This document shows, piece by piece, positions 10,463 to 55,534 of a stretch of 64,000 nucleotides of DNA (position 1 is its first letter; each line of letters begins with the position of its first letter). The notes beneath the pieces were generated by a model. The model saw only the letters and a list, made by a program, of their open reading frames with translations. It was not told where the DNA came from and did no database searches. This DNA is from Terrimicrobium sacchariphilum (lineage in GTDB: Bacteria > Verrucomicrobiota > Verrucomicrobiia > Chthoniobacterales > Terrimicrobiaceae): assembly GCF_001613545.1 (NCBI RefSeq), contig NZ_BDCO01000003.1, positions 248,001-312,000 on the forward strand, read 5' to 3'. Both the position numbers and the translations under genes were made by a program.

Positions 10463-10609
10463 GCGTCCTCATCTGTCTGGGCGACTTTTCCATCACCGGA
10501 AAAATGGAGGCTTTTCGTAGGAATTCAGGTAGTCCGTTTTTCGGAAAATGAGATGATCTCCCATGAAGTTGGCAACAGCTTCCCCAGAAACATTACCCCC
10601 ACTCTCCAC
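10463..10609. other. Short intergenic segment before the secreted-protein group
   Basis: Nothing coding is seen. CCGGAAAAATGG and CGTTTTTCGG tracts give a weak inverted-repeat feel at 10496-10548, possibly ending the upstream operon. The 23-bp regulon palindrome is absent. Confidence 0.3.
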
Positions 10610-11353: not shown

Positions 11354-11378
11354 TTTTCAGCATCGAAGAAACTCCCCC

Positions 11379-11912: not shown

Positions 11913-11965
11913 GAACGTTTGAGCAAGCGGGCGAAGATTTTCCCCTCCAGCCAACTCCCCTCCGC

Positions 11966-12664: not shown

Positions 12665-12726
12665 CGGGATCTCTTCCGAAGGGTCGAGGCTTCCATGGAC
12701 CTATCGCCCAGTCCTTGCCAAGAATT

Positions 12727-15561: not shown

Positions 15562-16680
15562 ATGGCACAAGTCAGCCTTAAAAACGTTTACAAGATCTAT
15601 CCGGGAGAGAGTGGCGCCGATGTCACGGCGGTGACAGACTTCAATCTCGAGATCGAGGACCGCGAGTTCGTCGTATTCGTTGGACCATCCGGCTGCGGAA
15701 AGTCTACGACTCTGCGTATGATCGCGGGTCTCGAGGAAATCTCAAAGGGTGATGTGTCCATCGGCGGCAAGCGGATGAATGATGTGCCGCCTAAGGATCG
15801 CGATATCGCGATGGTCTTTCAGAATTATGCGCTCTATCCGCATATGAGCGTGTACGACAATATGGCCTTTGGCCTTAAGCTGCGAAAGTACCCCAAGGCG
15901 GAAATCCACAAGCGTGTGATGGATGCAGCAGCGATCCTGGGCATTGAGCAGTATTTGGAACGCAGGCCCAAGGCGCTCTCGGGCGGGCAACGCCAGCGCG
16001 TAGCCGTGGGGCGTGCCATCGTCCGGCAGCCAAAGGTGTTCCTCTTTGACGAACCGCTGTCCAACCTCGATGCCAAGATGCGCGTGCAGATGCGTACGGA
16101 GATCACGAAACTCCACCAGCGCTTGCAGGCCACGATGATTTATGTGACCCACGATCAGGTCGAGGCGATGACGATGGGTACGCGCATCGTGGTGATGAAG
16201 GATGGCTTCATTCAGCAGGTGGATGCTCCGCTCAAGATCTACAGCGAACCCGTGAATCTCTTCGTGGCTGGCTTTCTGGGGACTCCTCCGATGAATTTTG
16301 TGAAAGGCACGCTAACCGGAATGGATGGGGGCATTGTTTTTCAGGAGACGCAGGGCGGAGCTGTGGAGTTAAAGCTGGGAGACCGCAAGGCGGCTTCTGC
16401 CTATCTCGGCAAAGAGGTGATCCTGGGCGTGCGTCCGGAGGATTGTGACATGGTGCTACCCGGTGAAAAGGCTGTGGAGCATTCGTTCCTGGCGGTGGTT
16501 GATCTGGTCGAGCCGATGGGCGCCGAGACCTATTTCTACATCCAGACCGGAGCGCACACGATGATCAGTCGCAGTTCCTCAATGATGATTCACCGCGAGA
16601 CGGGGCATCGCCAGGAGTTTTCGATCAAGGTGAACAAGGTGCACTTGTTCGATCCGGTGACGACGAATCGGATCGTTTAA
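15562..16680 (+). CDS. ABC transporter ATP-binding protein, MalK/UgpC family
   Basis: 372-aa cytoplasmic ATPase of CUT1-type sugar importers. Walker A GPSGCGKST is at about 38-46, the Q-loop in FQNYALYPH, the signature LSGGQRQRVAVGRAI, Walker B VFLFDEPLSNLD, and the H-loop His in VTHDQVEAMT. A C-terminal TOBE/OB-fold regulatory region (about 240-372, LGVRPEDCDM) is characteristic of MalK/UgpC. It stands alone with no permease beside it. The only permeases in the window are the fused pair at 48079-52696, so it may power them, as shared MalK-type ATPases do elsewhere. That partnership is inferred. Confidence 0.92.
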   Translation: MAQVSLKNVYKIYPGESGADVTAVTDFNLEIEDREFVVFVGPSGCGKSTTLRMIAGLEEISKGDVSIGGKRMNDVPPKDRDIAMVFQNYALYPHMSVYDNMAFGLKLRKYPKAEIHKRVMDAAAILGIEQYLERRPKALSGGQRQRVAVGRAIVRQPKVFLFDEPLSNLDAKMRVQMRTEITKLHQRLQATMIYVTHDQVEAMTMGTRIVVMKDGFIQQVDAPLKIYSEPVNLFVAGFLGTPPMNFVKGTLTGMDGGIVFQETQGGAVELKLGDRKAASAYLGKEVILGVRPEDCDMVLPGEKAVEHSFLAVVDLVEPMGAETYFYIQTGAHTMISRSSSMMIHRETGHRQEFSIKVNKVHLFDPVTTNRIV

Positions 16681-16816
16681 TCACGGAAACGTCAGCTTCA
16701 GCAGCCTGGATTGCTTGTGCCGGGCGCCTGGGCACTCTGGTGAATATGCCCGCGGCAAATCCTGCCAGAAAAGGAGCCGGAGTAAGACAATGGAGATGGG
16801 ACGGCTTGCGGGTTTT

Positions 16817-16839
16817 GCCTGTCAAGGAAACCGACAAGT
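16817..16839. promoter_or_regulatory. 23-bp palindromic operator, copy 1 (Verru_Chthon cassette)
   Basis: Left arm GCCTGTCAA, 5-bp spacer, right arm CCGACAAGT. It matches the other copies in the window in arm sequence and exact spacing, and ends 45 bp before the ATG of the first cassette gene. Confidence 0.65.
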
Positions 16840-16884
16840 TGCTGGTCCTTGATAATTTATGATTTGGGAATAGGGTGACGATTC

Positions 16885-17523
16885 ATGGATACATCGAGGG
16901 ACTGTTGTTATTCATGGGAGCAAAGGGCCAGGCGGCTCCCTACTTTCCGGGCGAGAGCTTTTTCGCTCGTAGAGCTTTTGACCGTGATAGCGATCATCTC
17001 GACTCTTGGAGGACTGACGGTCACTGCGCTGTCGGGGGTTTCTTCCTCTCGGGCTTCTGCGAATGGGGCCAGCCTTGTCGCTGACGTTCTTTTGTCAGCG
17101 CGCCAGCAGGCTGTTAGCTCCGGGCAGCCGGTAGCGGTGGTTTTTTCGTCCCGCATCCGGCCGGAGAAACCTCAGGCAATGATGCTGCTGGAAGGAGCTT
17201 GGAAAGATGGGGCGATGCAATGGAGTCCCTCGTCCCGTTGGCAGACATTTGGCAATGAAATCAGCGTGATTCCATTCGCGAGAGATCAGGTGGAATCGCT
17301 GTATTTGTCGAATTCCAAGGAACTGAGTTCGTCCTTGGAGATTCCGCTGCAAGGGGAGAAGGTCACTAACTACTTTTACCTGATTTATCGTCCCAATGGT
17401 TCAATTGACGCCCCCCAGACAGCGCCGAGTGTAGCCATCCGCAAACAGAACAAGGAATCCGTGAATGACTACGTCGTTGTTGCCCAGGAGAACACCGGTC
17501 GCATCAAGATCGTTGGGAATTGA
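16885..17523 (+). CDS. Verru_Chthon cassette protein D (GspH-like pseudopilin)
   Basis: 212 aa. A long basic leader precedes the prepilin motif AFSLVELLTVIAIISTLGGL with Glu at +5. The remainder resembles GspH-type minor pseudopilins (SLVADVLLSARQQAVSSGQP, then VAVVFSSRI). AGGGTGA stands 6 bp before the ATG. It is the first gene of five on the same strand, behind a 23-bp operator. Verru_Chthon cassettes of four such proteins are known only from Verrucomicrobia and their function is undescribed; assignment to protein D rests on size, order and the methylation motif. Confidence 0.85.
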   Translation: MDTSRDCCYSWEQRARRLPTFRARAFSLVELLTVIAIISTLGGLTVTALSGVSSSRASANGASLVADVLLSARQQAVSSGQPVAVVFSSRIRPEKPQAMMLLEGAWKDGAMQWSPSSRWQTFGNEISVIPFARDQVESLYLSNSKELSSSLEIPLQGEKVTNYFYLIYRPNGSIDAPQTAPSVAIRKQNKESVNDYVVVAQENTGRIKIVGN

Positions 17524-17962
17524 TCCGGAGCGTTCCATTGGGAACGGGTTCACTCTGGTTGAGGTGGTGGTGGCGATAGGGATTTTCTCTTTCTGTATTG
17601 TTGCGTTGATCGGGTTGTTGCAGGTGGCATTGACTTCCGTGCGAGAGTCCCAGGTGGATTCCTCTCTCGCCAGTGTGATTGGCAACCTCTCCGCCAATCT
17701 CAAGACGATCGACGCGACTGAGTTGTCCCGCGTCGATGGAACGAGCCAGTATTTTGATCTTGCAGGCATGCCCTTGGTGGCGACGAACGGAGTTTCCACT
17801 TATTTTCGGGCCAAATGGTCCGAGGTAGACACTGCGACGATGGATTCGCTCTTTGATTTGCCAGGCGGGGTCAATCTTCGGACCTGGGTGGTGGCGATCG
17901 AGTATCCAGCCCCGCAATACAGCAAGTCGCTGCGATTTTTGGTCGGCAGGCGAGCATGGTGA
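17465..17962 (+). CDS. Verru_Chthon cassette protein B (GspI-like pseudopilin)
   Basis: 165 aa from ATG at 17465, overlapping the previous gene by 59 bp in another frame. A TTG at 17513 would shorten the overlap to 11 bp and give a more usual leader. The prepilin motif is GNGFTLVEVVVAIGIFSF, followed by CIVALIGLLQVAL, like GspI-type minor pseudopilins. It ends in a TGATG junction with the next gene. Inner-membrane insertion and processing by prepilin peptidase are expected; function is unknown. Confidence 0.85.
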   Translation: MTTSLLPRRTPVASRSLGIDPERSIGNGFTLVEVVVAIGIFSFCIVALIGLLQVALTSVRESQVDSSLASVIGNLSANLKTIDATELSRVDGTSQYFDLAGMPLVATNGVSTYFRAKWSEVDTATMDSLFDLPGGVNLRTWVVAIEYPAPQYSKSLRFLVGRRAW

Positions 17963-18876
17963 TGAAAAAGCGCAGTGCTTTCACTCTCATCGAGTTGCTT
18001 GTGGGCATGGCGATCCTTTCCATACTGCTGCTGCTTATCTTCAACGTGATCGAGCGGACGGGTGCGCTTTCCTCCGGCAGCATGTCGCGGATGGAGGCCG
18101 CACGCATCGCCCGGGAGTGTTTTGACTTGATCGGGCGGGATCTGTCTGGAGCACAGTTGCCTTACAACCGGTCGGCCACGAATTCGCTGCAGTTCCTCGT
18201 CAATCCCAAGGATCTTGAGCCATCCTATGCCAATCCGCACTCCATCTTCTGGCAGGCACCGCTGGCCTCGTCTGCCGAGAACGGCAACCTGGCAATGGCG
18301 GGATATTTTGTCCAACGGGATGTGGTGACCTCCGATCCGAAGCAGAACCGCTTCCAGCTTCGCCGACTCTATGTGGAGCAATCGGACACGAACCGGTTTG
18401 ATCTCCTTTCCACGAGTGGAGGCAACGCGTGGTATCGAGCGCTGGTCCCGGAGTTTGCCCCGACGACCGAGTCTCCCCAAAGCGCGCAGGGTTTCAAGGG
18501 GTGGGTGGCAGACGGTGTGCTGGGGTTGTGGGTGCGATGTCTGGATGCAAGGGGCAAACCGATCAAGCTGACCGCGGCCGGGACTGATCTGCAGGCATCT
18601 TTTGACTCGCGGCAGGCCTTTCAATCCGATCGCAATCGTTATCCCTCCACAGGTTTTTCTGCACTCCCCGCATTCGTTGAGGTCGGAATGGTCACGTGTT
18701 CTCCCAGCGACACACGGAGGATTACGAAGCTTCCCGCGTCCGGCGCCAGTGGCAATCCGGATACCTTCTATCAGGATCTGAATGCCTTCGCGGCCAACCT
18801 GCAAAACGACAATCCTGCGGCGAAATCGATTATGGTTTCCTCGCGTATCATTCCCATTCTGACGGCAGATCCCTGA
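17962..18876 (+). CDS. Verru_Chthon cassette protein C (GspJ-like pseudopilin)
   Basis: 304 aa from the ATG at 17962, which shares one base with the upstream stop (TGATG), exactly as at the next junction; an ATG at 17956 adds two residues. The prepilin motif is KKRSAFTLIELLVGMAILSI. The following region (EAARIARECFDLIGRDLSGA) resembles GspJ-type minor pseudopilins, which lie in the pseudopilus tip complex. It sits third in the cassette. Confidence 0.88.
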   Translation: MKKRSAFTLIELLVGMAILSILLLLIFNVIERTGALSSGSMSRMEAARIARECFDLIGRDLSGAQLPYNRSATNSLQFLVNPKDLEPSYANPHSIFWQAPLASSAENGNLAMAGYFVQRDVVTSDPKQNRFQLRRLYVEQSDTNRFDLLSTSGGNAWYRALVPEFAPTTESPQSAQGFKGWVADGVLGLWVRCLDARGKPIKLTAAGTDLQASFDSRQAFQSDRNRYPSTGFSALPAFVEVGMVTCSPSDTRRITKLPASGASGNPDTFYQDLNAFAANLQNDNPAAKSIMVSSRIIPILTADP

Positions 18877-21800
18877 TGAAGTTCCAACGCTCCAACCGCG
18901 CCTCGGCGCTTATCATCATCCTCGTTGCCGTCGTGATGGTGACCATTCTCTGTGTGGCATTCCTAAACTTTGCCGGCATAGAGAGGCGCTCCTCGCGGCT
19001 TGCGCTAAACTCTACCATCGCGGGTTCTCTCGCCAGCGTGGGAGCTGATGCGGCACTCGCCAAGCTCAAGTACGCGACCGAGACAGGCATGCAGAAAGGC
19101 AAACTTTGGGCATCGGAGCCAGGCAGGATTCGTATCTTTCCGGCTGATAACCTTTCCGCCTATGAGGATGTCCAGCTTTTCTCTGCGTTGCCGGGGCCGG
19201 ATGTGCCGGGTGCGGCGGATATTAACAGCGTCGACCTTAACAAGCCATCCTATCAGGGGAGGCATCCGATCGTTGAGCCAGTGTCTTCAGGTGGGGAGGT
19301 GCCTATGAAGGTCGGATGGATTGACCTGCTGGCAGATCCAGGCAGCCCTGCCTCTCGAAGCAATCCTCTCATCGGTCGTGTGGCCTATTGGGTTGATGAT
19401 GAGAGCTGCAAAATAAACATCAACGTTGCGGATGGTAGCAAGAAGGATACGGCGCAGAGTTATGGCTTTGGCACGCCCTCGGAGGTAACTCTGGAGGCGC
19501 TCAGAAAACCCGATGGTTCTCACCTCAGCAATGCGCAGGCGGCAAAGATCAGTGAGTATGCATGGAGTAGCGGCTTCAACTCGGCAGCGGAAGTCACGAG
19601 GGCCGGGCTGAACGGCGAGGTTACCGAGGAGTTTTTCGAAAAGAACAAGTTTGTCCTGACCCATTACAGCAAGGCCCCGGAGATCAGTTTCACCGGGGAC
19701 CCGAAAATTTATCTCTTTCCTGCCGTGCGGCTTTCTTCCAACGGAGCCTCTGCCGGCGGCCTTGTGCGATCGTGGTTGACCAATGCGTATGGGGTGGCAC
19801 TCGACTCCGGGCTGACGAATTATCTCTCATCATCCGGCAGTACGGATGCGAAGCGCATCGCGATCACGGACCCGATCAATTTCGTCTATCCCACATCGCG
19901 GCAGATCGAAGCCGCCCTGCCCGGGAAGGCGCCTTTTTATCAGTTTGGTCGGCACTACTACCTGGATAGTGCGCAGTTGCTGGCGACGAGCCCGACGGGA
20001 ACGAATCCCGAGAACTATATTTTTGCCAAGAGAATCGCCGAGGCGATCAAGGGGATGAATTCGCTCCAGGGAGCGTTTACATGGCCGGTCTTTAGCGGCA
20101 GCGCCGCCGGGGGATTTGCGGATAAATACAATGACCGGCAGATCGATTCGCTCGCATTGCAGATCCTCGACATCGGGACCCGGGCGGCAATGGGAGACGA
20201 GGCGCGAGGGGGCAACCTGCCGTCGCTCGTCACGACGGGAATGTTGAGCGGGAAGAATGCGATCGGGCTCGGGCGTACGCCGAAGTTTACGGAATTCACT
20301 GTTTCCTTCGACGCGGTGCGCACAGCGACTCTTCCGACAGGTTCCGGACCTCCGCCCCGTGTTGCAAACATTCCGGCCCTCCAAATCGATCCGAAGGTTG
20401 AGTTTTGGTTTCCCTCTCAGTTTGAGGGGATGCCCTGGGATGAGAGATTCGGCGGATACTGGCGTCTTGGCCAGAACGGGAACAACTACATGCTCAATCC
20501 GGTGGAGCAGGTCTTCTCCGGCGCTTCGGCATTGGGTGGAAGCTGGATGGATAATCTATTTCAGATTACCGGGATCGATCTGGGAGGACTCAGCTTCACC
20601 TCGACAGATCCCGACCCGAGACATGCGATTTATCATCCCTATCGCAATGGACGGGGAGGTTCGAGCAATTCGCAGCCCTCCGGGAACAGGCGGCCGCCTT
20701 TTGCCTTTGCGACGGCCAGTACTTCGGGAACAGTATGGCGACCGGGTGAATACCATGGCGTGCCTGCGACCGATCGCGGGAGCGTGAGCTTATATGGTCC
20801 GAATGACCCGGCGATGACGGCCTTTCCCGTCTCAGGTGGCATCGTGCTCTGGACGCAGGCTGGCGGCGCAGGAGCGATCAATGGAAACTGGGATGTGGCA
20901 CCTCTCGACAGCCTGCGCGGGGACTACCGAACGACCAGCGGAGAGCCCAGTTACATCTATACCAGCGAACCCCCGATGAGCATCCGGACGGAACTGAAGG
21001 AGGCTGTCATCCCGGTGCCTGCGGGATTTAGCATTCCTCTTCCGGCGATCGAGCATGTCTGGCATGGTTACGTTAAGGACCCCTTGGTTAACAAATTCCC
21101 TGGCGACTGGATCGTGTCGGATACTGATGCGGATGCGACCCTGAAAACGAGCGGTGCCACGGCCTATTCCTACCAGGATGGTGCCAATCCAGGCTTTCTG
21201 GCCTCCCAGGGAGGCGATCCGCTGTCCGTCTGGATGCCGCGACTGGACGTGAACTACCCGAAACAATCGCGCTTTCCCTCGATTGGCGCGCTGAACTATG
21301 TTCGCACCGGCGTCGCACCTGATGATGTGACCGTCCCGCTTCCGCAACAAAAGGGCACGCCTTGGCGCAGCCTGAGCCTGACACCGGCCTCAGCTCCGGG
21401 GCAGGCCACCCTGAAGGGGAGGTATCCCGACTGGGCGATGCTGGATTTATTCACGGTGCCATTTCTGCCGCAGCTCCCGTTTCGGGTGGGTGAAGCAGCG
21501 CCCCCAAAGAGGCGCCTTACCTCTGGCGGGGCAACCGAGGGCAAGATCAATATCAACAACCCGGCGGTGCCATATCCGTTTTCGCAGACCATGAGCCAGG
21601 TTGAGCGTGATCAATTTCCCAAACGCACGGCTCCGATGGAGGCGCTTTTTTACAAGGTGAGGGTTAACCAGGGCTACGACGCAGCGGATGTCCCCGTGTA
21701 TGCCACACTGGGCGACTCGGAGGTGAGTACCCTCGTCTCAGCGATACAAAATCGGGTCATGGCGGGTGGTCCTTTCGTGCTGCCCGGGCAGATGGCCGAT

Positions 21801-22196
21801 GTGAGCGAGGTCGATACCTATACTTACAAAGGCGTTGCGGAGGAGGCGCAGTCGCGCAACGACTTGCTAAAGCAGGTGATCGGAGCGGCGACCACGCAAA
21901 GCAATGTCTTCTCGATCTGGGTCGTGGCGAGATCGGTCAAGAAGAAGGCTGCCAATACCAGGTTCGGAGAATTCGAGGCTGGTGATATGGTGACAGCCGA
22001 GGTGCGACGCCGGTATGTGGTGGAGCGGTTTATCGATCTCGGGGCTGATGGCGTGCCAGGAAATGCCAACAACCCGGGGACGGATGGCGTCGTTGGGACG
22101 GAGGATGATCCCGTCGATCCCAAATACCACCCGGCCATGAAACCGCCATTTCCTTATCTCTGGCGGATCGTCAGCATGGAGGAAATCCAGCGTTAG
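18876..22196 (+). CDS. Verru_Chthon cassette protein A (very large GspK-like protein)
   Basis: 1106 aa from the ATG at 18876, joined to the previous stop by TGATG. The N-terminus has a single membrane helix (SALIIILVAVVMVTILCVAF) after a short basic leader, as in GspK. VAYWVDDESCKININVADGS (about 177) matches the conserved start of the GspK periplasmic domain, and KINININ-type wording recurs near GKININNPAVPYPF. GspK itself is about 330 aa, so this is three times the usual pseudopilin size. The rest is rich in G, P, S and W and looks like an extended surface domain. GspK caps the pseudopilus tip; an equivalent tip role here is inferred from order and motif. Confidence 0.85.
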   Translation: MKFQRSNRASALIIILVAVVMVTILCVAFLNFAGIERRSSRLALNSTIAGSLASVGADAALAKLKYATETGMQKGKLWASEPGRIRIFPADNLSAYEDVQLFSALPGPDVPGAADINSVDLNKPSYQGRHPIVEPVSSGGEVPMKVGWIDLLADPGSPASRSNPLIGRVAYWVDDESCKININVADGSKKDTAQSYGFGTPSEVTLEALRKPDGSHLSNAQAAKISEYAWSSGFNSAAEVTRAGLNGEVTEEFFEKNKFVLTHYSKAPEISFTGDPKIYLFPAVRLSSNGASAGGLVRSWLTNAYGVALDSGLTNYLSSSGSTDAKRIAITDPINFVYPTSRQIEAALPGKAPFYQFGRHYYLDSAQLLATSPTGTNPENYIFAKRIAEAIKGMNSLQGAFTWPVFSGSAAGGFADKYNDRQIDSLALQILDIGTRAAMGDEARGGNLPSLVTTGMLSGKNAIGLGRTPKFTEFTVSFDAVRTATLPTGSGPPPRVANIPALQIDPKVEFWFPSQFEGMPWDERFGGYWRLGQNGNNYMLNPVEQVFSGASALGGSWMDNLFQITGIDLGGLSFTSTDPDPRHAIYHPYRNGRGGSSNSQPSGNRRPPFAFATASTSGTVWRPGEYHGVPATDRGSVSLYGPNDPAMTAFPVSGGIVLWTQAGGAGAINGNWDVAPLDSLRGDYRTTSGEPSYIYTSEPPMSIRTELKEAVIPVPAGFSIPLPAIEHVWHGYVKDPLVNKFPGDWIVSDTDADATLKTSGATAYSYQDGANPGFLASQGGDPLSVWMPRLDVNYPKQSRFPSIGALNYVRTGVAPDDVTVPLPQQKGTPWRSLSLTPASAPGQATLKGRYPDWAMLDLFTVPFLPQLPFRVGEAAPPKRRLTSGGATEGKININNPAVPYPFSQTMSQVERDQFPKRTAPMEALFYKVRVNQGYDAADVPVYATLGDSEVSTLVSAIQNRVMAGGPFVLPGQMADVSEVDTYTYKGVAEEAQSRNDLLKQVIGAATTQSNVFSIWVVARSVKKKAANTRFGEFEAGDMVTAEVRRRYVVERFIDLGADGVPGNANNPGTDGVVGTEDDPVDPKYHPAMKPPFPYLWRIVSMEEIQR

Positions 22197-22201
22197 GAAT
22201 C

Positions 22202-22708
22202 ATGCAAATCTCACTACGAGTATTCATCATTGTCTGCGTCTGGGCAATGCAGGCCATCGCAGCACAGTCTGCAGAAGAGAAGGACGAATCGCCCAAAGTG
22301 GAGGTCGTTGGCTCGGGATGGAGCGAGGATCACCAGCTTGTGCTCGGCGTGAGGATCACGGCAGCGAAGTCGAGGCATCTGGAATTGGGAAGAGCGGCAA
22401 AGACTTCAGAACAGACGGTTATGTTGTTCACCACCAAGGAAAGCTGGCTGATAGATATAGCCACTGGCAGCAAGATTTCCGCCAGTCGACGCTTTCCCAA
22501 CAAGCCGAACTTCGGATGGATCAAAAGCGCGGAGACGATTGCGCCGGGGGATTCCCGGGAGTTTACGGCTGCTTTTCCCGCGCCGCCGCTGCCGCCCGTC
22601 GTGAACGGCAAAAGGCAGGACTATCAGTTGGAACTCCATCTGCCGGGCGGACTCCCTCCGGTCACGTTTCGTATTCCCGTGCCGGCTGAGTTTTTGAACT
22701 CGCCATGA
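22202..22708 (+). CDS. Secreted protein linked to the Verru_Chthon cassette
   Basis: 168 aa, starting 5 bp after protein A. A signal peptide (MQISLRVFIIVCVWAMQAIA, cleaved near AQS) leads to a compact mature protein of about 145 aa with no Cys and several beta-like segments (HQLVLGVRITAAKSRHLEL, YQLELHLPGGLPPVTFRIPV). No known domain is recognised. Tight linkage suggests a periplasmic or outer-membrane helper of the cassette. It is the last gene before a convergent terminator. Confidence 0.75.
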   Translation: MQISLRVFIIVCVWAMQAIAAQSAEEKDESPKVEVVGSGWSEDHQLVLGVRITAAKSRHLELGRAAKTSEQTVMLFTTKESWLIDIATGSKISASRRFPNKPNFGWIKSAETIAPGDSREFTAAFPAPPLPPVVNGKRQDYQLELHLPGGLPPVTFRIPVPAEFLNSP

Positions 22709-22761: not shown

Positions 22762-23568
22762 TCAGGCTTTCTCGGTGGCGACCGGATTGGTCAGGCGACC
22801 GATGTTGTCGATCTCGATGGTGATTTCGTCGCCGGGCTTCAGCCAGCGCGGGGGCTTGGCGGCCATCCCGACACCATGGGGAGTCCCGGTGAGGATCACG
22901 GTGCCTGGCAGGAGTGTGGTGCTGCCGCTGAGGAACTCGATGAGGGTGGGTACGTTGAAGATCATGTCATCGGTATTCCAATCCTGAACGGTCTCGCCAT
23001 TCAGGATGGTGCGGATACCGAGTTGGTTGGGGTCGGGGATGTCATCGGTCGTGACGAGCACCGGGCCGAGCGGGCAGAACGTGTCGAAGAATTTGCCGCG
23101 GCACCACTGGCCGCCGCCCATCTTGAGCTGCCAGTCGCGGGCGCTCACGTCATTGGCGCAGGTGTAGCCGAGGACGTAGTCGAGGGCATCTTCCTTGCGT
23201 ACGTTCTTGCAGGGACGGCCGATGACGACGGCAAGCTCGCACTCGTAATCCACCTCATGGCTCGCCATCTTTGTCGGGATCTCGATCGGGTCGCCCGGAT
23301 GCTGGAGGGTATTGGTTCCCTTCACGAAGAGGATCGGCATCTGGGGCGTCTTGGCGCCGCTTTCCGCTGCGTGGTGACGATAGTTCAGCCCGATGCAAAG
23401 GATCGCCGTGGGTTCCAGGGGAGCCAGGAGTTTTTTGATCGTGTCATGTGTGCCTGTCGGAGACAGACCGGAGAACAGATCGCCCGAGAGGCGCTCGGCC
23501 TGGCCGGACTCCAGGAGCCTGCCGAAGTGGGTCTGGTCGTCGGGAGTTTGGTAGCGGATGATTTTCAT
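22762..23568 (-). CDS. Fumarylacetoacetate hydrolase family protein (second copy)
   Basis: 268 aa, close paralogue of the protein at 79-897; both share MKIIRY, LNY-x2-HAAESG, VDYECELA, LGYTCANDVSARDWQ, GGGQWCRGK and LSGSTTLLPGTVILTGTPHG. The start (complement of 23566-23568) overlaps the nagA-like stop by 4 bp. It is the last gene of the nine-gene amino-sugar operon and probably splits a diketo acid to pyruvate and a second carboxylate. Metal ligands E-x-E and D are retained. The substrate is not known. Confidence 0.9.
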   Translation of the reverse strand: MKIIRYQTPDDQTHFGRLLESGQAERLSGDLFSGLSPTGTHDTIKKLLAPLEPTAILCIGLNYRHHAAESGAKTPQMPILFVKGTNTLQHPGDPIEIPTKMASHEVDYECELAVVIGRPCKNVRKEDALDYVLGYTCANDVSARDWQLKMGGGQWCRGKFFDTFCPLGPVLVTTDDIPDPNQLGIRTILNGETVQDWNTDDMIFNVPTLIEFLSGSTTLLPGTVILTGTPHGVGMAAKPPRWLKPGDEITIEIDNIGRLTNPVATEKA

Positions 23569-30017: not shown

Positions 30018-30040
30018 ACTTGTTAGTAGTGTTTACAAGG
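30018..30040. promoter_or_regulatory. 23-bp palindromic operator, copy 2 (amino-sugar/M55 divergent promoter)
   Basis: Left arm ACTTGTTAG, 5-bp spacer, right arm TTTACAAGG. It lies 49 bp before the minus-strand SDR start and 73 bp before the plus-strand M55 peptidase start. It is weaker than copies 1, 4, 6 and 7 (G to A at the first base, GACAAG to TACAAG) but spacing is identical. Confidence 0.5.
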
Positions 30041-36249: not shown

Positions 36250-37326
36250 ATGGACCCGATCCCTCGCCGGTATTCTTTGGTGGCTCAAGTGGGCGATATC
36301 TTGCAGGAGGAAATCAAAACCGGATTGATGCGAGACGTGCTTCCGTCGGAGCTGGACCTGTCCCGGCGTTTCCAGGTGAGCAGACCGACGATTCGCGATG
36401 CCCTGGAGATTTTGCGAAAGGCCGGGTTGATCGAGTCCTCCCGCGGGCAGAATCATCGGATCATTCCGCAGAAAGTGAGCGTCGAGGCTCCTCGCAAGGC
36501 GGGGGGGGTGACCGTGTTGGGCTTTGCGCCGCTCGATGAGCTGTCCCCCTTTTCCCTGTCCCTGATGAGCCAGATCCAGCTGGCGGTGGGGTCCAAACAC
36601 GAGGTCCGGATCGTGTCAAACTCCAACCTCACCACTCCGGCGGCGTTGCGAGACCTGACCTCGAGGGAGAGGCAGCTGTGCTGGGTGTTGATCGGCCCGC
36701 CCGCGGATGTCCTCCACTGGTTCGAAGCCAACCGGCTGCCCTGTCTGGCCCTGGCTCCGAGCATTCGTTCCAAGGAAATCCCCATCCTAGCCATGGATAT
36801 GCAGTCTGTGATGATGCATGCCTTTTCCCTGGCCATGCAGCGGGGCTACTCGGGTCCGTATTTGCTGATCCCCGCCAATCGGCAGACATCCGAGACGGCG
36901 CGATTTTTTGCGGAAGCCCAGGCGAAGCATCCACAAAGGGATGCGGCCCTCTATTCGCATGACACGACGATGATCGGCGTACGGCGTGCCGTGGAGAAGA
37001 TCATGCGGAGCAAGAAAGGCGACGATCATCCGCCCCTGATCCTCGTGGTGCGGCCCAAGCACGCTCTCATGGCTCTCTCTGTCCTGCGGGCGCAGGATCT
37101 CAAGCCGGGCATGCACTATGGACTGATCTCTATCGGGCGGGAAAACTACATCGACTACGTGATCCCGACGATGGCCTGCTACACGATCAAGCGGCAGCGG
37201 CTCTTCAAGAAATTCCTGAGGATGCTCTCAGAGATTTTGGACAGCGGCTACACGCGGCCGGGTTTGTTTTCCGTGATCGCGGATTTTTACGAAGGAGAAA
37301 CCTTTCCCCGCCTCGGCGGTCAGTGA
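36250..37326 (+). CDS. GntR-type winged-helix regulator with LacI-like effector domain
   Basis: 358 aa from the ATG at 36250 (MDPIPRRYSLV); an upstream extension overlaps the divergent gene and is rejected. Residues about 8-75 are a GntR winged helix (DLSRRFQVSRPTIRDALEIL, then KAGLIESSRG). The rest resembles the periplasmic-binding-protein fold of LacI-type regulators (GVTVLGFAP, YLLIPANRQT, LILVVRPKHAL), as in AraR. It probably senses a sugar. It faces the Gfo/Idh-enolase operon and converges on the epimerase gene, overlapping it by 7 bp at the stops. It is the only such regulator in the middle of the window and the best local candidate for the 23-bp operator. Confidence 0.87.
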   Translation: MDPIPRRYSLVAQVGDILQEEIKTGLMRDVLPSELDLSRRFQVSRPTIRDALEILRKAGLIESSRGQNHRIIPQKVSVEAPRKAGGVTVLGFAPLDELSPFSLSLMSQIQLAVGSKHEVRIVSNSNLTTPAALRDLTSRERQLCWVLIGPPADVLHWFEANRLPCLALAPSIRSKEIPILAMDMQSVMMHAFSLAMQRGYSGPYLLIPANRQTSETARFFAEAQAKHPQRDAALYSHDTTMIGVRRAVEKIMRSKKGDDHPPLILVVRPKHALMALSVLRAQDLKPGMHYGLISIGRENYIDYVIPTMACYTIKRQRLFKKFLRMLSEILDSGYTRPGLFSVIADFYEGETFPRLGGQ

Positions 37327-46828: not shown

Positions 46829-46851
46829 GCTTGTCGGTTTGGCTGACAAGC
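46829..46851. promoter_or_regulatory. 23-bp palindromic operator, copy 4 (LamG / AGE divergent promoter)
   Basis: Left arm GCTTGTCGG, 5-bp spacer, right arm CTGACAAGC. This is the best palindrome in the window, one mismatch between arms. It lies 48 bp from the LamG start and 75 bp from the AGE start. Confidence 0.7.
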
Positions 46852-46855
46852 TGAC

Positions 46856-46878
46856 TGTTGTAAGGAAAGATGACAAGT
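46856..46878. promoter_or_regulatory. Second, weaker operator copy beside copy 4
   Basis: Left arm TGTTGTAAG, 5-bp spacer, right arm ATGACAAGT. The right arm is consensus and the left keeps TTGT and G. Its centre is 27 bp from the first site, so the pair could bind two dimers. Confidence 0.45.
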
Positions 46879-46925: not shown

Positions 46926-48089
46926 TTGTTGAGTTTCTACCGCCAATTTCTTTTTGAGGGAGTCATCCCGTTCTGGCTGGAACACGGCATCGACCGGGTT
47001 CGTGGCGGTCTGCTGACCTGCATGGACGAGGCGGGGAAGCTCATTAGCTCGGAGAAATTTGCGTGGTCACAGGGGCGTGGAATTTGGACGTTTGCGGCGA
47101 TTCACCGTCGGCTTTCGCCGGACCCTCAGCTTTTGGAGATCGCGGTGCAGACCGCGGAGTTTTGCCTGGCTCATGCGATCCAGGCCGACGGGCGGGTATG
47201 TTTCCGCATGTCGCGCAGTGGGGAGGTGCTCGAGGGGCATACCAGCGTCTATGCCGATTTGTTTCTGGCATATGGGTTGAACGAGCTGTATCTCGCCACA
47301 GGCACGCAGCATTACCGGGATACGGCTCTGCGTTTATTCCGGCAAAGCGCCGCAGAGATCACGCAGCCTTATTTCAAGACGATCGCGCCCTATGCCCTTC
47401 CGTCTGGTACGGCATGGGTGCATGGTCCGCCGATGATCGCGCTGGAGACCGCCAATGAACTGTTGGAAGGGGGAGCCGAGAGAGACCTGATTGATTTTGT
47501 CGACTGGGCGTTGGAGCGCATCATGGTACACCATCGGCGTCCGGAATGGAAAACCCTGCTGGAGCACCTGGGACCGGCGGATGAGTTTGTGGACACGCCG
47601 GAGGGACGGGCAGTCGTTCCAGGCCATACGATCGAGTCGATGTGGTTTGTCATTCACGCGGCCACTCGTCGGAATCGTCCGGACCTTGTTCAGCAGGCCA
47701 TCGAGGCGATTCGCTGGATGCTTGAGGCTGGGTGGGATGCGGAGTTTGGGGGAATCTTTCTTGGGCTGGACGCGCGCGGCCACCAGCCGCCGTGGTATGC
47801 CAATGCAGACAAGAAACTCTGGTGGGTGCATTGCGAGGCGATCTATGCGCTGGCGCTGTGCGGAAGTCTCCGCCCGGAGCCATGGGTCGACGAGTGGTCT
47901 GGACGGGTGCTGGACTGGTCGCTGGCTCATCATGGCGACGGCAGAGGCGAGTGGACCCAGCGGCTTGACCGGGAGGGAAAACCGATCAAGGAACTTATTG
48001 CCCTGCCGGTGAAGGACCCGTTTCATTTACCCCGCGCACTTACTCTCAGCATTCAGCTTCTTTCCCATACGCATCCTTATGTCCGTTAG
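46926..48089 (+). CDS. AGE family epimerase/isomerase
   Basis: 387 aa, starting at TTG 46926 or 46929 with GGCGGAG a few bases before; no ATG or GTG fits. The (alpha/alpha)6 barrel motifs are RGIWTFAAIHRR, GHTSVYADLFLAYGL, PGHTIESMWFVIHA and KKLWWVHCEAIYAL, which carry the catalytic His pair. Members convert N-acylglucosamine to N-acylmannosamine, mannose to fructose, or cellobiose-type sugars. In a window with nanA, nagA and nagB, interconversion of ManNAc and GlcNAc is attractive but not proven. It overlaps the downstream permease fusion by 11 bp. Confidence 0.88.
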   Translation: MLSFYRQFLFEGVIPFWLEHGIDRVRGGLLTCMDEAGKLISSEKFAWSQGRGIWTFAAIHRRLSPDPQLLEIAVQTAEFCLAHAIQADGRVCFRMSRSGEVLEGHTSVYADLFLAYGLNELYLATGTQHYRDTALRLFRQSAAEITQPYFKTIAPYALPSGTAWVHGPPMIALETANELLEGGAERDLIDFVDWALERIMVHHRRPEWKTLLEHLGPADEFVDTPEGRAVVPGHTIESMWFVIHAATRRNRPDLVQQAIEAIRWMLEAGWDAEFGGIFLGLDARGHQPPWYANADKKLWWVHCEAIYALALCGSLRPEPWVDEWSGRVLDWSLAHHGDGRGEWTQRLDREGKPIKELIALPVKDPFHLPRALTLSIQLLSHTHPYVR

Positions 48090-50784
48090 CCGAATTTTTG
48101 GTTTCATCTTGCTCCTGGCAGGATGGGTGGCCGTTGCACAGGCAGGGGGAGAGGTCGAGGTGATCGATGGGAGGCCCGTCATTAATGTGGTCGTGCCGAA
48201 CCTGCCCATCCCGAGTGATAACTCCGCCATTGCTCGTGCCCAGGTTGCGGTGGTGCGGCAGTTTACGGCCGATTTTCCCCGCATTTTTCGCGAGAAGTAT
48301 CTCGCCCGCTATCTGGCTGATCCCCAGAAATACGGGTCTTATGATTGGGAGAATGTTGCGATAAGGCTGGTACCCTTTTCCGGACTCAAGGTGGAGGGAG
48401 TGGAAAGCGATCTCATGGCCATCGCGGGCGGCTCACCGCCGGATGTGCTTTATGTGAATTTTCGCAAATCCGACACCTACATCCGAAACGGATTCCTATA
48501 TCCCCTCGACAAGCTGGAGGACCCGTACTTCACCTCATTCAGCGATGCCCAGAAGCGCGCTCGGGTGCATCCCAAGATCTGGCCCGTCATTGATCGGAAG
48601 GGGCCGGACGGTCAGAAACATATCTGGGCTCTGCCCACCGGAGGCTTCATGGGCCGGGTGCTCGCTTACCGCAAGGACCTCTTTGACGAAGCGGGGCTGG
48701 CCTACCCGACGGTGGACTGGACGTGGGATGACATGCTGCATGCAGCCAGGGTGTTGACTGATCCCTCCCGCAATCGCAGCGGTTTGCTGATGCGCGGCGA
48801 CCCGGGGTGGAATTTTTCCACCTTTCTGTGGTCTGCTGGTGGAGAAGTGATGGAGTACGACGAGCCCGCCGACGAATGGCGGTGTGTCTTTGGAAGCCCG
48901 GAAGGGGCGAAGGCTCTGGATTACTTTCTGCAGCTGACCCAGGAACTCTGGCAGACCAAGGAGGGGCAATGGATGCGTGGATATGCCTTCAATGACCAGC
49001 GGCTGGGAGATTACAAGTGGCAGCGCGGCGAGGTCGGGATGAACCTCGTCTACATGGATGAGCAGTTCATCTCCGGGCTGAATCCGGAGCTCGTGGGCAT
49101 CGTGCCAGTGCCGAAGGGACCGACTGGATTGCGCGCCGGAGAACTGAACAGCCGCATGCTGGGCATCTACTCGCAGATCAAATCCCCCGCGGTGCGAGAT
49201 GCCGCCTGGGAGTATATCGCGTATCAGGACAGCGATGCGGCCGGGGCGGTGCGGACGCGAGTCCTGGTGGAAGCCGGGCTGGGACGCTTTGTCAGCCCGC
49301 GCGACTTGAACAAGTTCGGGTATGCCGAGGTTGCCCGCCTTGCGCCCAAGGGCTGGGCGGAGGTGTTTCGCATCGCGTCGGAGACCGGCCGCCCGGAGCC
49401 CTACGGAAAGAACAGCAACCTGGCTTACCGCATGTTGGGAATCCCGGTACGCGAAGCAGCAGAGGCGGCAATGCGCAATGGACTTCCGAAGGCTCCGAAC
49501 GAACGCATCAAATATCTGGCGGAATTGCTGCAGCGCGGCGAGCAGCGCGCCAATGCGGCGATGATTGGCAAGGTGACGCCAGAGGAGCGACGGACGCGCT
49601 CGATCGTCGCGGCGATCTTCCTGATCTTCGTGGCTGCGGCGTTTGGATTCGTTTTCTTCCGGGTGTTCCAGACATTTGGTTCCCAGGCGGCCACGGTGCC
49701 CGGTCGGATTGGCTTTCGGCGGGGCCTTGCGATCAGCCTCATGCTGGCGCCTGCGCTGCTGTCGATTCTGGTCTGGAAATACTATCCGCTGCTGGCGGGT
49801 TCCGTGATGGGGTTTCAGGATTATCGTATTCTGGAGGGATCTACTTGGGTCGGTTTGAAGCACTTTGGAGACATGCTGTGGGATGGGCTGTGGTGGCAGT
49901 CTCTGTGGAACTCGATGCGATTTTCCTTCATCTCTCTGGTCTTCGGTTTTTTACCGCCGATCATCCTGGCAATCCTTCTCCAGGAGGTGCCGAGGGGGAA
50001 GGTGTTCTATCGCCTGATGTTTTACTTGCCTGCGGTCCTGGCCGGCCTCGTGACGCTCCTGCTTTGGAAACAGTTCTACGATCCGACGCCGCGTGCTCCG
50101 CTCAATGCCATCATCCTGAAGCTGCCCGCTATCGTTTTTGTTGGCGTGGGGCTCGCTGTATTAACGCTTACCCTGGTGCTGGCGAACCGCTTCCGCTTTC
50201 ACGGCCAGATGGTTCCTGCCGTCATCTCGACACTGGTGGGTATTGTCTTTCTGGTGAGCGTGGTGAGCATTCCCTGGGTGGTGCTGGAGGAGCATGGGCT
50301 GGCCGGACTCTTCCGCACGCTGCCCGAGCCAATCCAGTGGCTGAAAGATCCCCGCTATGCCATGCTGTCGATCGTGCTCCCGGGCATATGGGCTGGCGCG
50401 GGACCTGGGTGCCTGATCTATCTGGCTGCCTTGAAGGGCATCCCGGACGACTTCTATGATGCCGCCGAGATCGATGGAGCGGGCTTCTTTGACAAGCTCA
50501 TCACCATCGTCATTCCCATGATGCGTCCGCTGATCATGATCAGTTTTGTCGGAGCGTTCATCGGATCGTGGCTGGGATCGGCGGATCATGTGCTGGCCAT
50601 GACCGGAGGGGAGGCCAATACTGAGGTCGCGCCGCTGAATATTTTCTACAAGGCTTTTGTGTACCTGGAGTTTGGTCCTGCGACAGCGATGGCCTGGATG
50701 CTGGGATTCCTGCTGATCGGTTTCACGGTCTATCAACTGCGCATGCTCGCGAAAGTCGAGTTTCGCACGACGGGAGGAAGATAA
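48079..50784 (+). CDS. Fused sugar-binding protein and MalF-type ABC permease
   Basis: 901 aa. Residues 1-22 are a signal sequence (FGFILLLAGWVAVAQA). Residues about 35-470 are an extracellular solute-binding domain of the CUT1 type (GGSPPDVLYVNFRKSDTYI, GFLYPLDKLEDPYF, ALPTGGFMGRVLAYRKDLF, WTWDDMLHAARVL). A membrane helix at about 507-528 (IVAAIFLIFVAAAFGFVFF) leads to a MalF-like permease to the end. The ABC coupling loop is ALKGIPDDFYDAAEIDGAG near 785-803, and the GSWLGSADHVLAMTGG helix follows. Binding protein and permease are normally separate in this class, so the fusion would give a fixed receptor-to-channel ratio. It is co-transcribed with the AGE gene and the MalG-type permease 4 bp downstream. 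Confidence 0.9.
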   Translation: MSVSRIFGFILLLAGWVAVAQAGGEVEVIDGRPVINVVVPNLPIPSDNSAIARAQVAVVRQFTADFPRIFREKYLARYLADPQKYGSYDWENVAIRLVPFSGLKVEGVESDLMAIAGGSPPDVLYVNFRKSDTYIRNGFLYPLDKLEDPYFTSFSDAQKRARVHPKIWPVIDRKGPDGQKHIWALPTGGFMGRVLAYRKDLFDEAGLAYPTVDWTWDDMLHAARVLTDPSRNRSGLLMRGDPGWNFSTFLWSAGGEVMEYDEPADEWRCVFGSPEGAKALDYFLQLTQELWQTKEGQWMRGYAFNDQRLGDYKWQRGEVGMNLVYMDEQFISGLNPELVGIVPVPKGPTGLRAGELNSRMLGIYSQIKSPAVRDAAWEYIAYQDSDAAGAVRTRVLVEAGLGRFVSPRDLNKFGYAEVARLAPKGWAEVFRIASETGRPEPYGKNSNLAYRMLGIPVREAAEAAMRNGLPKAPNERIKYLAELLQRGEQRANAAMIGKVTPEERRTRSIVAAIFLIFVAAAFGFVFFRVFQTFGSQAATVPGRIGFRRGLAISLMLAPALLSILVWKYYPLLAGSVMGFQDYRILEGSTWVGLKHFGDMLWDGLWWQSLWNSMRFSFISLVFGFLPPIILAILLQEVPRGKVFYRLMFYLPAVLAGLVTLLLWKQFYDPTPRAPLNAIILKLPAIVFVGVGLAVLTLTLVLANRFRFHGQMVPAVISTLVGIVFLVSVVSIPWVVLEEHGLAGLFRTLPEPIQWLKDPRYAMLSIVLPGIWAGAGPGCLIYLAALKGIPDDFYDAAEIDGAGFFDKLITIVIPMMRPLIMISFVGAFIGSWLGSADHVLAMTGGEANTEVAPLNIFYKAFVYLEFGPATAMAWMLGFLLIGFTVYQLRMLAKVEFRTTGGR

Positions 50785-50788
50785 AGCC

Positions 50789-52696
50789 ATGCCAATGATC
50801 TCTCTCATCGGGCGTCGACAATGGAAGTCGCGCCTCCTCATCTGGTCCATCTACATCGTGCTGTCCGCGGGCGTAGTGACGATGGTTTACCCGTTCTTGC
50901 TGATGCTGGGCGGTAGCACCAAGACCTCGCTCGATGCCGCCGAGGTCACGGTGATGCCTCGGTATCTGGTCAATGAAACCGCCTTGTACCGGAAGTACCT
51001 GGAGGGTTTTTTCAATGAGCGGAGTGAGGCGATGCAAAACGCCTACGGGCTGTGGGATGCGACCTTCCTGAAGGTGAGTCTTCCGGGAGAATCCTCGCCT
51101 CTGATCGCGGACTGGCAGTCTTTTGTCGCGGACCGGGAGAAGAGCGAGAACGTGGCCTGGTTCGTCCTCGCCTATTTGCAGTGTCCGGTCAGCAAAAATG
51201 CGGTCCCCTTCAACCTCTCGAAACTGCGCACCGAGCTCCTGCGGGAAAACGGAAGCATCGAGGCTGTCAATCTCAAGTACCAGACTTCGTTTCCCAACGT
51301 ATCGGCGTTTTATGTCGTGCCGGCGAACTTTCTCAATCGGTTCGTCACCAGCGCGGCAACTCCGTTCGCCCAGCGGGTGGAGGAGTTTTCCCTGGCGCAG
51401 CCTGTCATGTGGAGGGCGTATGTTGATCTGTCGAATTTCTTTCGTAGCTATCTCCGAGGGGAGTACGGGGCGTCGATTGCCGCCCTAAATGGTGCTCTGG
51501 GGACATCCTTCGGATCCTGGAGCGATGTCCCGCTCGAGGCCACGCGAGCCGAGATGCCTCCTGCATTGCACAAAGACTACGAAGCCTTTGTACGAAACGT
51601 TCTGAACCCTGTGTTTTTGCAGGTCGATTCCGGCAGGGCTCTGGAATTCCGGTCGTACCTGAAGGCGAAGTATCGCGGCGATATAGCCGCTTTCAATGAA
51701 CGCCGGGGGACGGCGGTGACCAGTTTTGAGGAAGTGGTTTTTCCCACGACGAGGCCCAGGCAGAGCATTGAGAAGACGGACTGGGATGGGTTTCTCGAGG
51801 GCTGGACGGATGATGCTACCGGTTCTAGATATCAGCTCCCGATCGAAGGAATACGGCTTACCGGGCCGGATTTTGCCTTTCGGGAATATCTTGGCCAGCG
51901 ATATGGCAGCTTGGCCCGGATGAATGAAATGCTGGGCACCGCTCATTCCACCTGGGGCGTGGTAGCGATGCCGCAACAGGCGGCGCAGTTTGTCGATTTC
52001 CAGAAGATGCAGGGCTGGCTCAAATGGTATTTCACCACCCGCAACTACATCGATGTGTGGAACTACCTCGTTGTTAATGGGCGGGGATTCTTTAACACGC
52101 TGATCTTTTGCGCGCTCTCCATCCTGGCCGCGCTCACTGTAGACCCGATCGCTGCTTACGCGCTCAGCCGTTTCAAGCCTCGCTCCACCTACAAGGTGCT
52201 TCTCTTCCTCATGATGACGATGGCGTTTCCCGCCATGGTGACGCAGATCCCCATGTTCCTGCTCCTGCGGGAGCTAGGCATGCTCAATACCTTCTGGGCG
52301 CTGATCCTGCCGGGGCTGGCCAATGGTTATCACATCTTTCTTCTCAAGGGGTTTTTCGACTCCCTCCCGCGCGAGCTCTACGAAAGTGCCGCCATCGACG
52401 GGGCGAGCGAGCCGACGATCTTTTTCAACATCACGATGGCCTTGTCCAAGCCGATCCTGGCCGTGATCGCCCTGGGGGCCTTCACCCATGCCTATGCGGC
52501 GTTTATGTTTGCCCTCCTCATCTGTCAGGACCCGAAGATGTGGACGCTCATGGTGTGGCTCTTCCAGTTGCAACAGACGAGCGGCCAGGGCATCGTCTAC
52601 GCAGCCCTCATTGTCGCGGCTATTCCCACCCTGCTGGTGTTCGTCTTCTGTCAGAACATCATCATGCGGGGCATTGTCGTCCCAGTGGAAAAGTAG
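50789..52696 (+). CDS. MalG-type ABC permease with a large repeat-bearing periplasmic insertion
   Basis: 635 aa, more than twice the usual 280. Helix 1 is at about 17-38 (IVLSAGVVTMVYPFLLML). A soluble segment of about 390 residues (40-430) follows, then a normal MalG core (FFNTLIFCALSILAALTVDP, AYALSRFKPRS) with the coupling loop SLPRELYESAAIDGASEP (about 524-541). The insertion has four spaced repeats of a motif around YG-x-I-x-A-x-N-x3-GT-x-F-x-S: about 151-178 (GSIEAVNLKYQTSFPN), 221-250 (YGASIAALNGALGTSFGSW), 290-323 (YRGDIAAFNERRGTAVTSF) and 367-395 (YGSLARMNEMLGTAHSTW). Topology places it on the periplasmic side, facing the fused binding protein of its partner. Confidence 0.88.
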   Translation: MPMISLIGRRQWKSRLLIWSIYIVLSAGVVTMVYPFLLMLGGSTKTSLDAAEVTVMPRYLVNETALYRKYLEGFFNERSEAMQNAYGLWDATFLKVSLPGESSPLIADWQSFVADREKSENVAWFVLAYLQCPVSKNAVPFNLSKLRTELLRENGSIEAVNLKYQTSFPNVSAFYVVPANFLNRFVTSAATPFAQRVEEFSLAQPVMWRAYVDLSNFFRSYLRGEYGASIAALNGALGTSFGSWSDVPLEATRAEMPPALHKDYEAFVRNVLNPVFLQVDSGRALEFRSYLKAKYRGDIAAFNERRGTAVTSFEEVVFPTTRPRQSIEKTDWDGFLEGWTDDATGSRYQLPIEGIRLTGPDFAFREYLGQRYGSLARMNEMLGTAHSTWGVVAMPQQAAQFVDFQKMQGWLKWYFTTRNYIDVWNYLVVNGRGFFNTLIFCALSILAALTVDPIAAYALSRFKPRSTYKVLLFLMMTMAFPAMVTQIPMFLLLRELGMLNTFWALILPGLANGYHIFLLKGFFDSLPRELYESAAIDGASEPTIFFNITMALSKPILAVIALGAFTHAYAAFMFALLICQDPKMWTLMVWLFQLQQTSGQGIVYAALIVAAIPTLLVFVFCQNIIMRGIVVPVEK

Positions 52697-52786: not shown

Positions 52787-52809
52787 GCTTGTTCGCAAAA
52801 CTGACAAGT
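52787..52809. promoter_or_regulatory. 23-bp palindromic operator, copy 6 (beta-strand-repeat protein)
   Basis: Left arm GCTTGTTCG, 5-bp spacer, right arm CTGACAAGT, ending 68 bp before the ATG at 52878. Arms match the consensus at every conserved position. Confidence 0.65.
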
Positions 52810-55511: not shown

Positions 55512-55534
55512 GCTTGTTTGCTTGGTTGACAAGC
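55512..55534. promoter_or_regulatory. 23-bp palindromic operator, copy 7 (PcRGLX-like copy 2)
   Basis: Left arm GCTTGTTTG, 5-bp spacer, right arm TTGACAAGC, 121 bp before the ATG at 55656. A right half-site TTGACAGGC follows at 55547-55555. Copy 4 and this copy share the bases TTGG inside the spacer. Confidence 0.65.

What the first reader, a model, noticed from the sequence alone, without database searches (positions are those of the whole stretch)
16817..22708. Verru_Chthon pseudopilin cassette appears co-regulated with glycan degradation
The cassette has had no described role. Here its promoter carries a good copy of the same operator that precedes polysaccharide lyase-like genes, a sugar ABC importer and surface proteins. 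This suggests that the cassette builds a surface or secretion apparatus used when the cell attacks polysaccharide.
Basis: partly seen in the sequence, partly recalled or inferred. Interest (0 to 1): 0.72.

Follow-up and report, generated by a model that had tools for sequence, protein, structure and literature searches.

The report
Sugar-controlled pseudopilin tip gene set
In the soil bacterium Terrimicrobium sacchariphilum, a set of pilus-tip-like genes of unknown role shares its control switch with neighbouring genes that take polysaccharides apart, and the genome carries about 23 such sets, most of them beside their own sugar-sensing regulator, which suggests that each set is a dedicated tool for attacking one kind of polysaccharide.

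Summary
16885-22708 is an operon D-B-C-A-E; D, B, C and A are diverged relatives of the "Verru_Chthon cassette" proteins, each below NCBI's cut-off. A 21-bp palindrome, CTTGTC-N9-GACAAG (here CCTGTC...GACAAG), lies 47 bp before D. Copies precede a sugar-acid catabolic operon, a lectin-like/heparinase operon, a sugar ABC importer, a surface protein and a lyase-like gene. Of seven unmismatched CTTGT-N11-ACAAG sites in the genome, four lie in this window. A sister species keeps the whole 36-kb block; conservation upstream of the cassette begins at the operator. The inference partly holds and widens. Order and weak homology (A to GspK, C to GspJ, D to GspH) point to a minor-pseudopilin tip operon, not a complete apparatus. 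The genome has about 23 such operons, none within 44 kb of a detected secretin or extension-type ATPase. Sixteen lie within 10 kb of a LacI/GntR-type sugar regulator (3.8 expected), amid glycoside hydrolases and surface proteins. The link recurs in some related genomes and is absent in one. My reading: sugar-induced accessory tip sets used with a shared secretion or pilus engine. Co-regulation is well supported; the tip role and engine sharing are inferred. Expression was not tested.

The parts
16818..16838 (.). Operator copy CCTGTCAAGGAAACCGACAAG before the cassette, 47 bp from the D start codon
   Evidence: footprint in sister species
16885..17523 (+). Protein D: prepilin-like (RAFSLVELL), GspH-like minor pseudopilin
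   Evidence: TIGR02596 39.6 bits (cut-off 70), TIGR01708 gspH E=5e-6
17465..17962 (+). Protein B: prepilin-like (NGFTLVEVV), GspI-like by position and weak match
   Evidence: TIGR02598 51.3 bits (cut-off 51.4), TIGR01707 gspI E=2e-5
17956..18876 (+). Protein C: prepilin-like (SAFTLIELL), GspJ-like
   Evidence: TIGR02599 57.2 bits (cut-off 256.5); profile of 14 C proteins against E. coli GspJ E=3e-9, probability 96%
18876..22196 (+). Protein A, 1106 aa: pilin-like N-terminal helix without the Glu5 position, very large globular part; GspK-like
   Evidence: TIGR02600 172.8 bits (cut-off 332.3); 19 members of the cassette protein set hit NF037980 GspK, in detail N-terminal in three A paralogues; best of five E. 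coli pseudopilins is GspK, weakly
22202..22708 (+). Protein E, 168 aa, secretion-signal-like N-terminus, no known family; follows A also in two distant relatives
30019..30039 (.). Operator copy 50 bp before the SDR / Gfo-Idh / DHDPS-like / creatininase-like / SDR / NagB-like / NagA-like / FAA-hydrolase gene run (29969 down to 22762, - strand); identical in the sister species
36250..37326 (+). GntR-family regulator, candidate binder of the operator; two conserved CTTGTC half-sites at 36182 and 36199 before its start
   Evidence: PF00392 E=5e-9, translation, conservation, PDB hits to GntR repressors
46830..46850 (.). Perfect operator copy CTTGTCGGTTTGGCTGACAAG in the divergent promoter of the lectin-like/FGE/GH32-like/heparinase-like genes (-) and the epimerase/ABC importer genes (+); identical in the sister species
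46857..46877 (.). Weaker second operator-like copy beside 46830; altered in the sister species
48079..52696 (+). Sugar ABC importer: SBP plus permease fused in one ORF, and second permease ORF; no ATPase of its own
52788..52808 (.). Operator copy before a surface protein with passenger-transport repeats (52878-55370)
55513..55533 (.). Operator copy before an exo-rhamnogalacturonan-lyase-like gene (55629-59441) and a BNR-repeat gene
15562..16680 (+). MalK/UgpC-type sugar importer ATPase directly upstream of the cassette; no good operator copy of its own; conserved beside the cassette in the sister species

Best explanation
The cassette is one operon of a local, sugar-responsive regulon. A repressor, most likely the GntR-family protein at 36250-37326, binds CTTGTC-N9-GACAAG before the cassette, the sugar-acid catabolic operon, the importer, the lectin-like/heparinase operon, the surface protein and the lyase-like gene, and a sugar ligand releases it (co-regulation: supported by sequence; identity of the regulator and of the ligand: inferred). 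The operon encodes four pseudopilin-like subunits in the order of the type II secretion genes gspH-I-J-K (order shown; homology weak), plus a small exported protein E. These would form a tip complex that starts a pseudopilus or pilus and decides what it carries or touches, working with core machinery encoded elsewhere (inferred). Because the genome holds about 23 such operons, none near a detected secretin or extension-type ATPase gene, and most lie beside their own sugar regulator, glycoside hydrolase and surface-protein genes, I read them as interchangeable accessory sets switched on with the matching polysaccharide.
For: Operator recurrence and genome-wide concentration; sites 47-96 bp before start codons (and for the lectin gene start); conservation in the sister species beginning at the operator within a collinear 36-kb block. 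H-I-J-K reading: family hits of the window proteins, GspK hits in 19 of 69 cassette proteins and N-terminal in the A paralogues inspected, C against GspJ E=3e-9, E. coli order G-H-I-J-K for comparison. Machinery elsewhere: 5 full-length ATPase matches and 6 secretin matches in the genome, nearest cassette 44 kb. Generality: flanks of the other 22 cassettes hold 13 Peripla_BP_3 regulators, 11 PEP-CTERM, 7 PATR and many glycoside hydrolase or lyase proteins among 167; 126 control proteins show at most 2 Peripla_BP_3 and 2 PEP-CTERM. 16 of 23 cassettes lie within 10 kb of a Peripla_BP_3 regulator against 3.8 expected, no shift in 5000 reaching it. Same tendency in two congeners (8 of 21 against 2.7; 7 of 20 against 3.1) and in other families G083 (7 of 14 against 1.5, shift p 0.004) and G142 (9 of 26 against 3.7, p 0.007).
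Against: No expression data. The operator was not found near the 36-47% identical cassettes of other genera. G102, with 14 cassettes and only 5 such regulators, shows no link and G115 no significant one. GspK and GspJ similarity is largely N-terminal and below curated cut-offs; the window's own A has no GspK hit. The C-terminal part of the GntR protein is not recognised as a sugar-binding domain by Pfam. A de novo search found no convincing shared operators at the other cassettes. Structure models were too poor to use.
Confidence: 0.6

Rival explanations
1. The cassette is a surface pilus or adhesin tip that grips or takes up polysaccharide (type IV pilus-like) and does not serve secretion of enzymes. 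Regulation as in the main reading.
For: Minor pilins of type IV pili and T2SS pseudopilins are homologous; cassette proteins also hit ComG, PilV and PilW-like models. Neighbouring PEP-CTERM and PATR surface proteins. Planctomycete fibres bind dextran (PMC5394234).
Against: Gene order and the A-to-GspK and C-to-GspJ best matches favour the T2SS type, but not decisively.
Confidence: 0.3
2. The cassette only lies in the glycan island and shares the operator by proximity; its product has no role in polysaccharide use.
For: Glycan loci are gene-rich islands; in G102 cassettes occur without such regulators.
Against: Conserved operator position in the sister species; 16 of 23 cassettes of the genome beside sugar regulators; repeated tendency in other families.
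Confidence: 0.15
3. The palindrome is real but is read by another regulator (for instance the AraC-type protein at 2802-3764 or one encoded elsewhere), possibly as an activator site.
For: No binding data; the GntR protein's ligand domain is not recognised.
Against: The GntR gene is central, 89% identical in the sister, with conserved CTTGTC half-sites before its start; the AraC gene was not found in the sister's collinear block.
Confidence: 0.2
4. The operator copy before the cassette is a chance match.
For: It has one mismatch, in the outer part of the left half (CCTGTC), and the sister has two.
Against: Chance about 0.0008 for that gap, 90% conservation in a 37% conserved stretch, same spacing to the start codon as the other sites.
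Confidence: 0.05

Closest known systems
Verru_Chthon cassette (NCBIfam TIGR02596, TIGR02598, TIGR02599, TIGR02600)
   Same: Four co-directional genes whose products hit D, B, C and A; A is over 1000 aa
   Different: All four score below the curated cut-offs; order D-B-C-A; extra gene E; controlled by a local operator
Type II secretion minor pseudopilins GspH-I-J-K (e.g. E. coli K-12 gsp, Pseudomonas XcpUVWX)
   Same: Order, prepilin N-termini in three subunits, large fourth subunit without the Glu5 position; best profile matches of A and C
   Different: No core T2SS genes nearby; A is about three times the length of GspK; about 23 sets per genome; identity weak
Myxococcus xanthus minor pilin/PilY1 clusters 1-3 (PMC7541494, PMC9109919)
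   Same: Several tip sets thought to share one pilus machine, differently regulated
   Different: Three clusters, no sugar regulators or glycan genes reported in the passages read; each has PilY1, not seen here
Alginate-induced PulG-like pseudopilin of Verruconatronum alginivorum (PMC13274419)
   Same: A pseudopilin gene lies in, and another is induced together with, alginate lyase clusters in a verrucomicrobial relative; 67 homologues in that genome
   Different: Single PulG-like protein, described there as such; not stated to be a Verru_Chthon cassette
Bacteroidota polysaccharide utilization loci
   Same: One locus with surface proteins, lyases, import, catabolism and a dedicated regulator
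   Different: ABC importer instead of SusC/SusD among the genes annotated here; pseudopilin set instead of a surface glycan-binding pair

Membership tests
Verru_Chthon cassette | Proteins over the curated cut-offs of TIGR02596/98/99/600 | tested here: not met
   39.6/70, 51.3/51.4, 57.2/256.5, 172.8/332.3 bits
Verru_Chthon cassette | All four protein types in one operon | tested here: met
T2SS minor pseudopilin operon (gspH-I-J-K) | Prepilin cleavage motif in H, I and J types | tested here: met
   FSLVELL, FTLVEVV, FTLIELL
T2SS minor pseudopilin operon (gspH-I-J-K) | Gene order H-I-J-K | tested here: met
   D-B-C-A with D-H, B-I, C-J, A-K assignments; the B assignment rests mainly on position
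T2SS minor pseudopilin operon (gspH-I-J-K) | GspK family match of protein A | tested here: inconclusive
   Paralogues hit NF037980 in the N-terminus below cut-off; the window's A does not; hhalign E=8e-4
T2SS minor pseudopilin operon (gspH-I-J-K) | Encoded with the core secretion genes | tested here: not met
   nearest detected secretin or extension-type ATPase to any cassette is 44 kb away
GntR-family regulator with LacI-like sugar domain | GntR DNA-binding domain | tested here: met
   PF00392 E=5e-9
GntR-family regulator with LacI-like sugar domain | Peripla_BP_3 domain | tested here: inconclusive
   no Pfam match at 1e-4, not listed in the genome-wide search; likeness by eye only
Polysaccharide utilization regulon | Co-expression on the substrate | not testable with these tools
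   no expression data held

The most novel reading that the evidence does not exclude
Terrimicrobium and some relatives carry a toolbox of about 20 interchangeable pseudopilus tip complexes, each under its own sugar regulator and dedicated to one polysaccharide, all loaded onto one or a few shared secretion or pilus engines: a substrate-specific surface system that fills the place SusCD has in Bacteroidota.
Probability: 0.35. Interest if true: 0.85.

Novelty: new variant of a known kind. Interest (0 to 1): 0.62.

Why it matters
The Verru_Chthon families carry no assigned role in NCBIfam, and no paper naming them was found in the library searched. The result gives them a concrete, testable one: sugar-induced tip sets of a type IV filament machine used in polysaccharide attack. 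Verrucomicrobiota are abundant degraders of complex glycans; which surface system they use instead of SusCD is, as far as I know, open. T. sacchariphilum is a cultured strain, so expression can be measured directly.

Tried and rejected
De novo search for operators shared between each of the other 22 cassettes and its neighbourhood: nothing clearly above controls, and weak power, since even the known operator ranked only p=0.013. AlphaFold models of C and A from two-sequence alignments: pLDDT 39 and 26, not used; fold search not run on them. PDB profile searches: A and B no relevant hit; C and D only pilin N-terminal helices. C-terminal part of A against E. coli GspK: no match. Promoter scan: no sigma-70-like site at the cassette start. 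The operator was looked for at cassettes of other genera and not found with at most one mismatch.

Full report
The window lies in a genome of 4,751,807 bases in three contigs. Size and contig number equal those published for Terrimicrobium sacchariphilum NM-5 (PMC5532833); I take that identity as near certain, but it rests on this match alone.

What is there. The ORFs at 16885-17523, 17465-17962, 17956-18876 and 18876-22196 overlap or abut and are followed by a fifth at 22202-22708. They hit the NCBIfam models of Verru_Chthon cassette proteins D, B, C and A in that order, all below the curated cut-offs, B by 0.1 bit. This is a diverged relative of the named cassette. The fifth protein has no family, but a homologue follows A in two distant relatives, G005 and G027.

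The operator. A palindrome CTTGTC-N9-GACAAG recurs at 16818 (first half CCTGTC), 30019, 46830, 52788 and 55513, with a weaker copy at 46857. The spacing of 11 between CTTGT and ACAAG is the only spacing from 0 to 19 that gives unmismatched copies. In the whole genome there are 7 unmismatched copies of CTTGT-N11-ACAAG, four in this window, and 22 with at most one mismatch to the longer form, four in the window. The outside copies inspected lie in long open frames. The copy before the cassette ends 47 bp before the D start codon; others lie 50, 70, 76 and 96 bp before starts. The lectin-like gene has a start at 46781 with a signal-peptide-like N-terminus, 48 bp from its site (read). The genes behind the sites are SDR, Gfo/Idh, DHDPS-like, creatininase-like and NagB-like catabolic enzymes (the NagA-like assignment of 23568-24476 is by motif), a LamG lectin-like/FGE/GH32-like/heparinase-like run, an epimerase and sugar ABC importer, a PATR surface protein, and a PcRGLX lyase-like gene.

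Conservation. A sister species (G001, JAFKMU010000035.1) keeps a collinear block from 16814 to 52711 (82% nucleotide identity), with every gene from the cassette to the importer. The operators at 30019 and 46830 are identical there, and the cassette copy is GCTGTCAGGGAAACCGACAAG. Upstream of the cassette, identity is 37% over 16681-16811, 90% over the operator and 74% from there to the start codon. Constraint therefore begins at the operator. The block stops before the PATR and lyase-like genes: of the PATR protein only short pieces match, and those two operators were not seen in the sister. The cassettes of G027, G005, G041 and G006 (roughly 36-47% identity in A) have no copy with at most one mismatch nearby and no good match to this GntR.

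The regulator. The only regulator gene found inside the conserved block is a GntR-family protein, 36250-37326. Two CTTGTC half-sites, fully conserved in the sister, lie 50-70 bp before its start. Its C-terminal part resembles LacI-type sugar domains by eye, but Pfam does not recognise it. That it binds the operator is inference.

What the cassette is. B, C and D have prepilin cleavage motifs; A has the hydrophobic N-terminal helix without the glutamate, as GspK does. Across 69 cassette proteins of this genome the GspK model hits 19; in the detailed scan it hits A proteins only, in the N-terminal 60-90 residues, below cut-off. A profile of 14 C proteins matches E. coli GspJ best (E=3e-9, 96%); A matches GspK best, weakly; D matches GspG and GspH; B is undecided. 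In the window the order D-B-C-A equals gspH-I-J-K. In Pseudomonas the corresponding four minor pseudopilins form the pseudopilus tip complex, described as critical for recognising and binding secretion substrates (PMC6211770). I therefore read the cassette as a tip operon. The match is too shallow to call it a member of the Gsp families.

The general pattern. Besides the window's cassette, the genome has 22 further TIGR02600 relatives in large open frames: 13 over the cut-off and 9 diverged. Five full-length and three weaker T2SSE-family ATPase matches, and six secretin matches, were found; measured to the five full-length ATPases and five of the secretin matches, no cassette lies closer than 44 kb. 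Of 167 proteins flanking the other 22 cassettes, 13 hit Peripla_BP_3, 11 PEP-CTERM and 7 PATR, with GH1, GH2, GH5, GH28, GH38 and alginate-lyase domains repeatedly; among 126 control proteins Peripla_BP_3 is not in the list (so at most 2), PEP-CTERM has 2 and no glycoside hydrolase is listed. Peripla_BP_3 regulators lie within 10 kb of 16 of 23 cassettes, against 3.8 expected; no circular shift in 5000 reached this. The window's own cassette is not among the 16, because its GntR is not recognised by that model and lies about 17 kb away. In two congeners the figures are 8 of 21 and 7 of 20, from a truncated regulator list. Outside the family, G083 and G142 show the link, G115 not significantly, and G102 not at all. 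The genera are not independent samples, and contig breaks lower the counts.

Precedents. In Myxococcus three clusters of minor pilins and PilY1 are thought to serve one pilus machine (PMC7541494), with PilY1 expression switched by a phosphorelay (PMC9109919). In Verruconatronum alginivorum a PulG-like pseudopilin lies in the alginate-induced cluster, and one of three further induced genes encodes a pseudopilin (PMC13274419). Planctomycete fibres bind dextran (PMC5394234). So accessory tip sets and pseudopilin induction by a polysaccharide are known. What I have not found described is the number of sets and their pairing with sugar regulators. The search covered an open-access library only.

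Shown: cassette, operator, its concentration and conservation, and the genome-wide proximity to sugar regulators. Inferred: GntR as the binder, de-repression by a sugar, tip-complex assembly, shared engine, and substrate (an acidic polysaccharide, from the lyase-like and sugar-acid enzymes). Not tested: expression, binding, export.

Noticed in passing
window 7841-14508: A run of GH-like-10, PEP-CTERM, DUF1559-type pseudopilin and right-handed beta-helix genes upstream of the cassette; no match to these genes was found in the sister's collinear stretch.
   Followed up: partly
window 48079-52696: ABC importer in which the solute-binding protein and a permease form one ORF, and the second permease ORF has a long N-terminal part with a weak GH42 match; no ATPase gene beside it (MalK-type ATPase at 15562).
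   Followed up: no
window 82-963 and 22762-23745: Two FAA-hydrolase paralogues, about 72% identical in DNA over the repeated stretches, at the two ends of the region.
   Followed up: no
genome G142 (same class, other family): 64 first-look candidates for Verru_Chthon protein A in one 6.6-Mb genome; 26 places counted from the scored matches.
   Followed up: partly
L132:2579-16854 (E. coli K-12): The cryptic gsp operon with the order gspG-H-I-J-K lies close to the endochitinase gene chiA, a parallel for pseudopilin genes beside a glycan-degrading enzyme.
   Followed up: no
window 36182-36204: Two CTTGTC half-sites as a direct repeat before the GntR start, fully conserved in the sister species; not the palindromic arrangement of the other sites.
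   Followed up: partly
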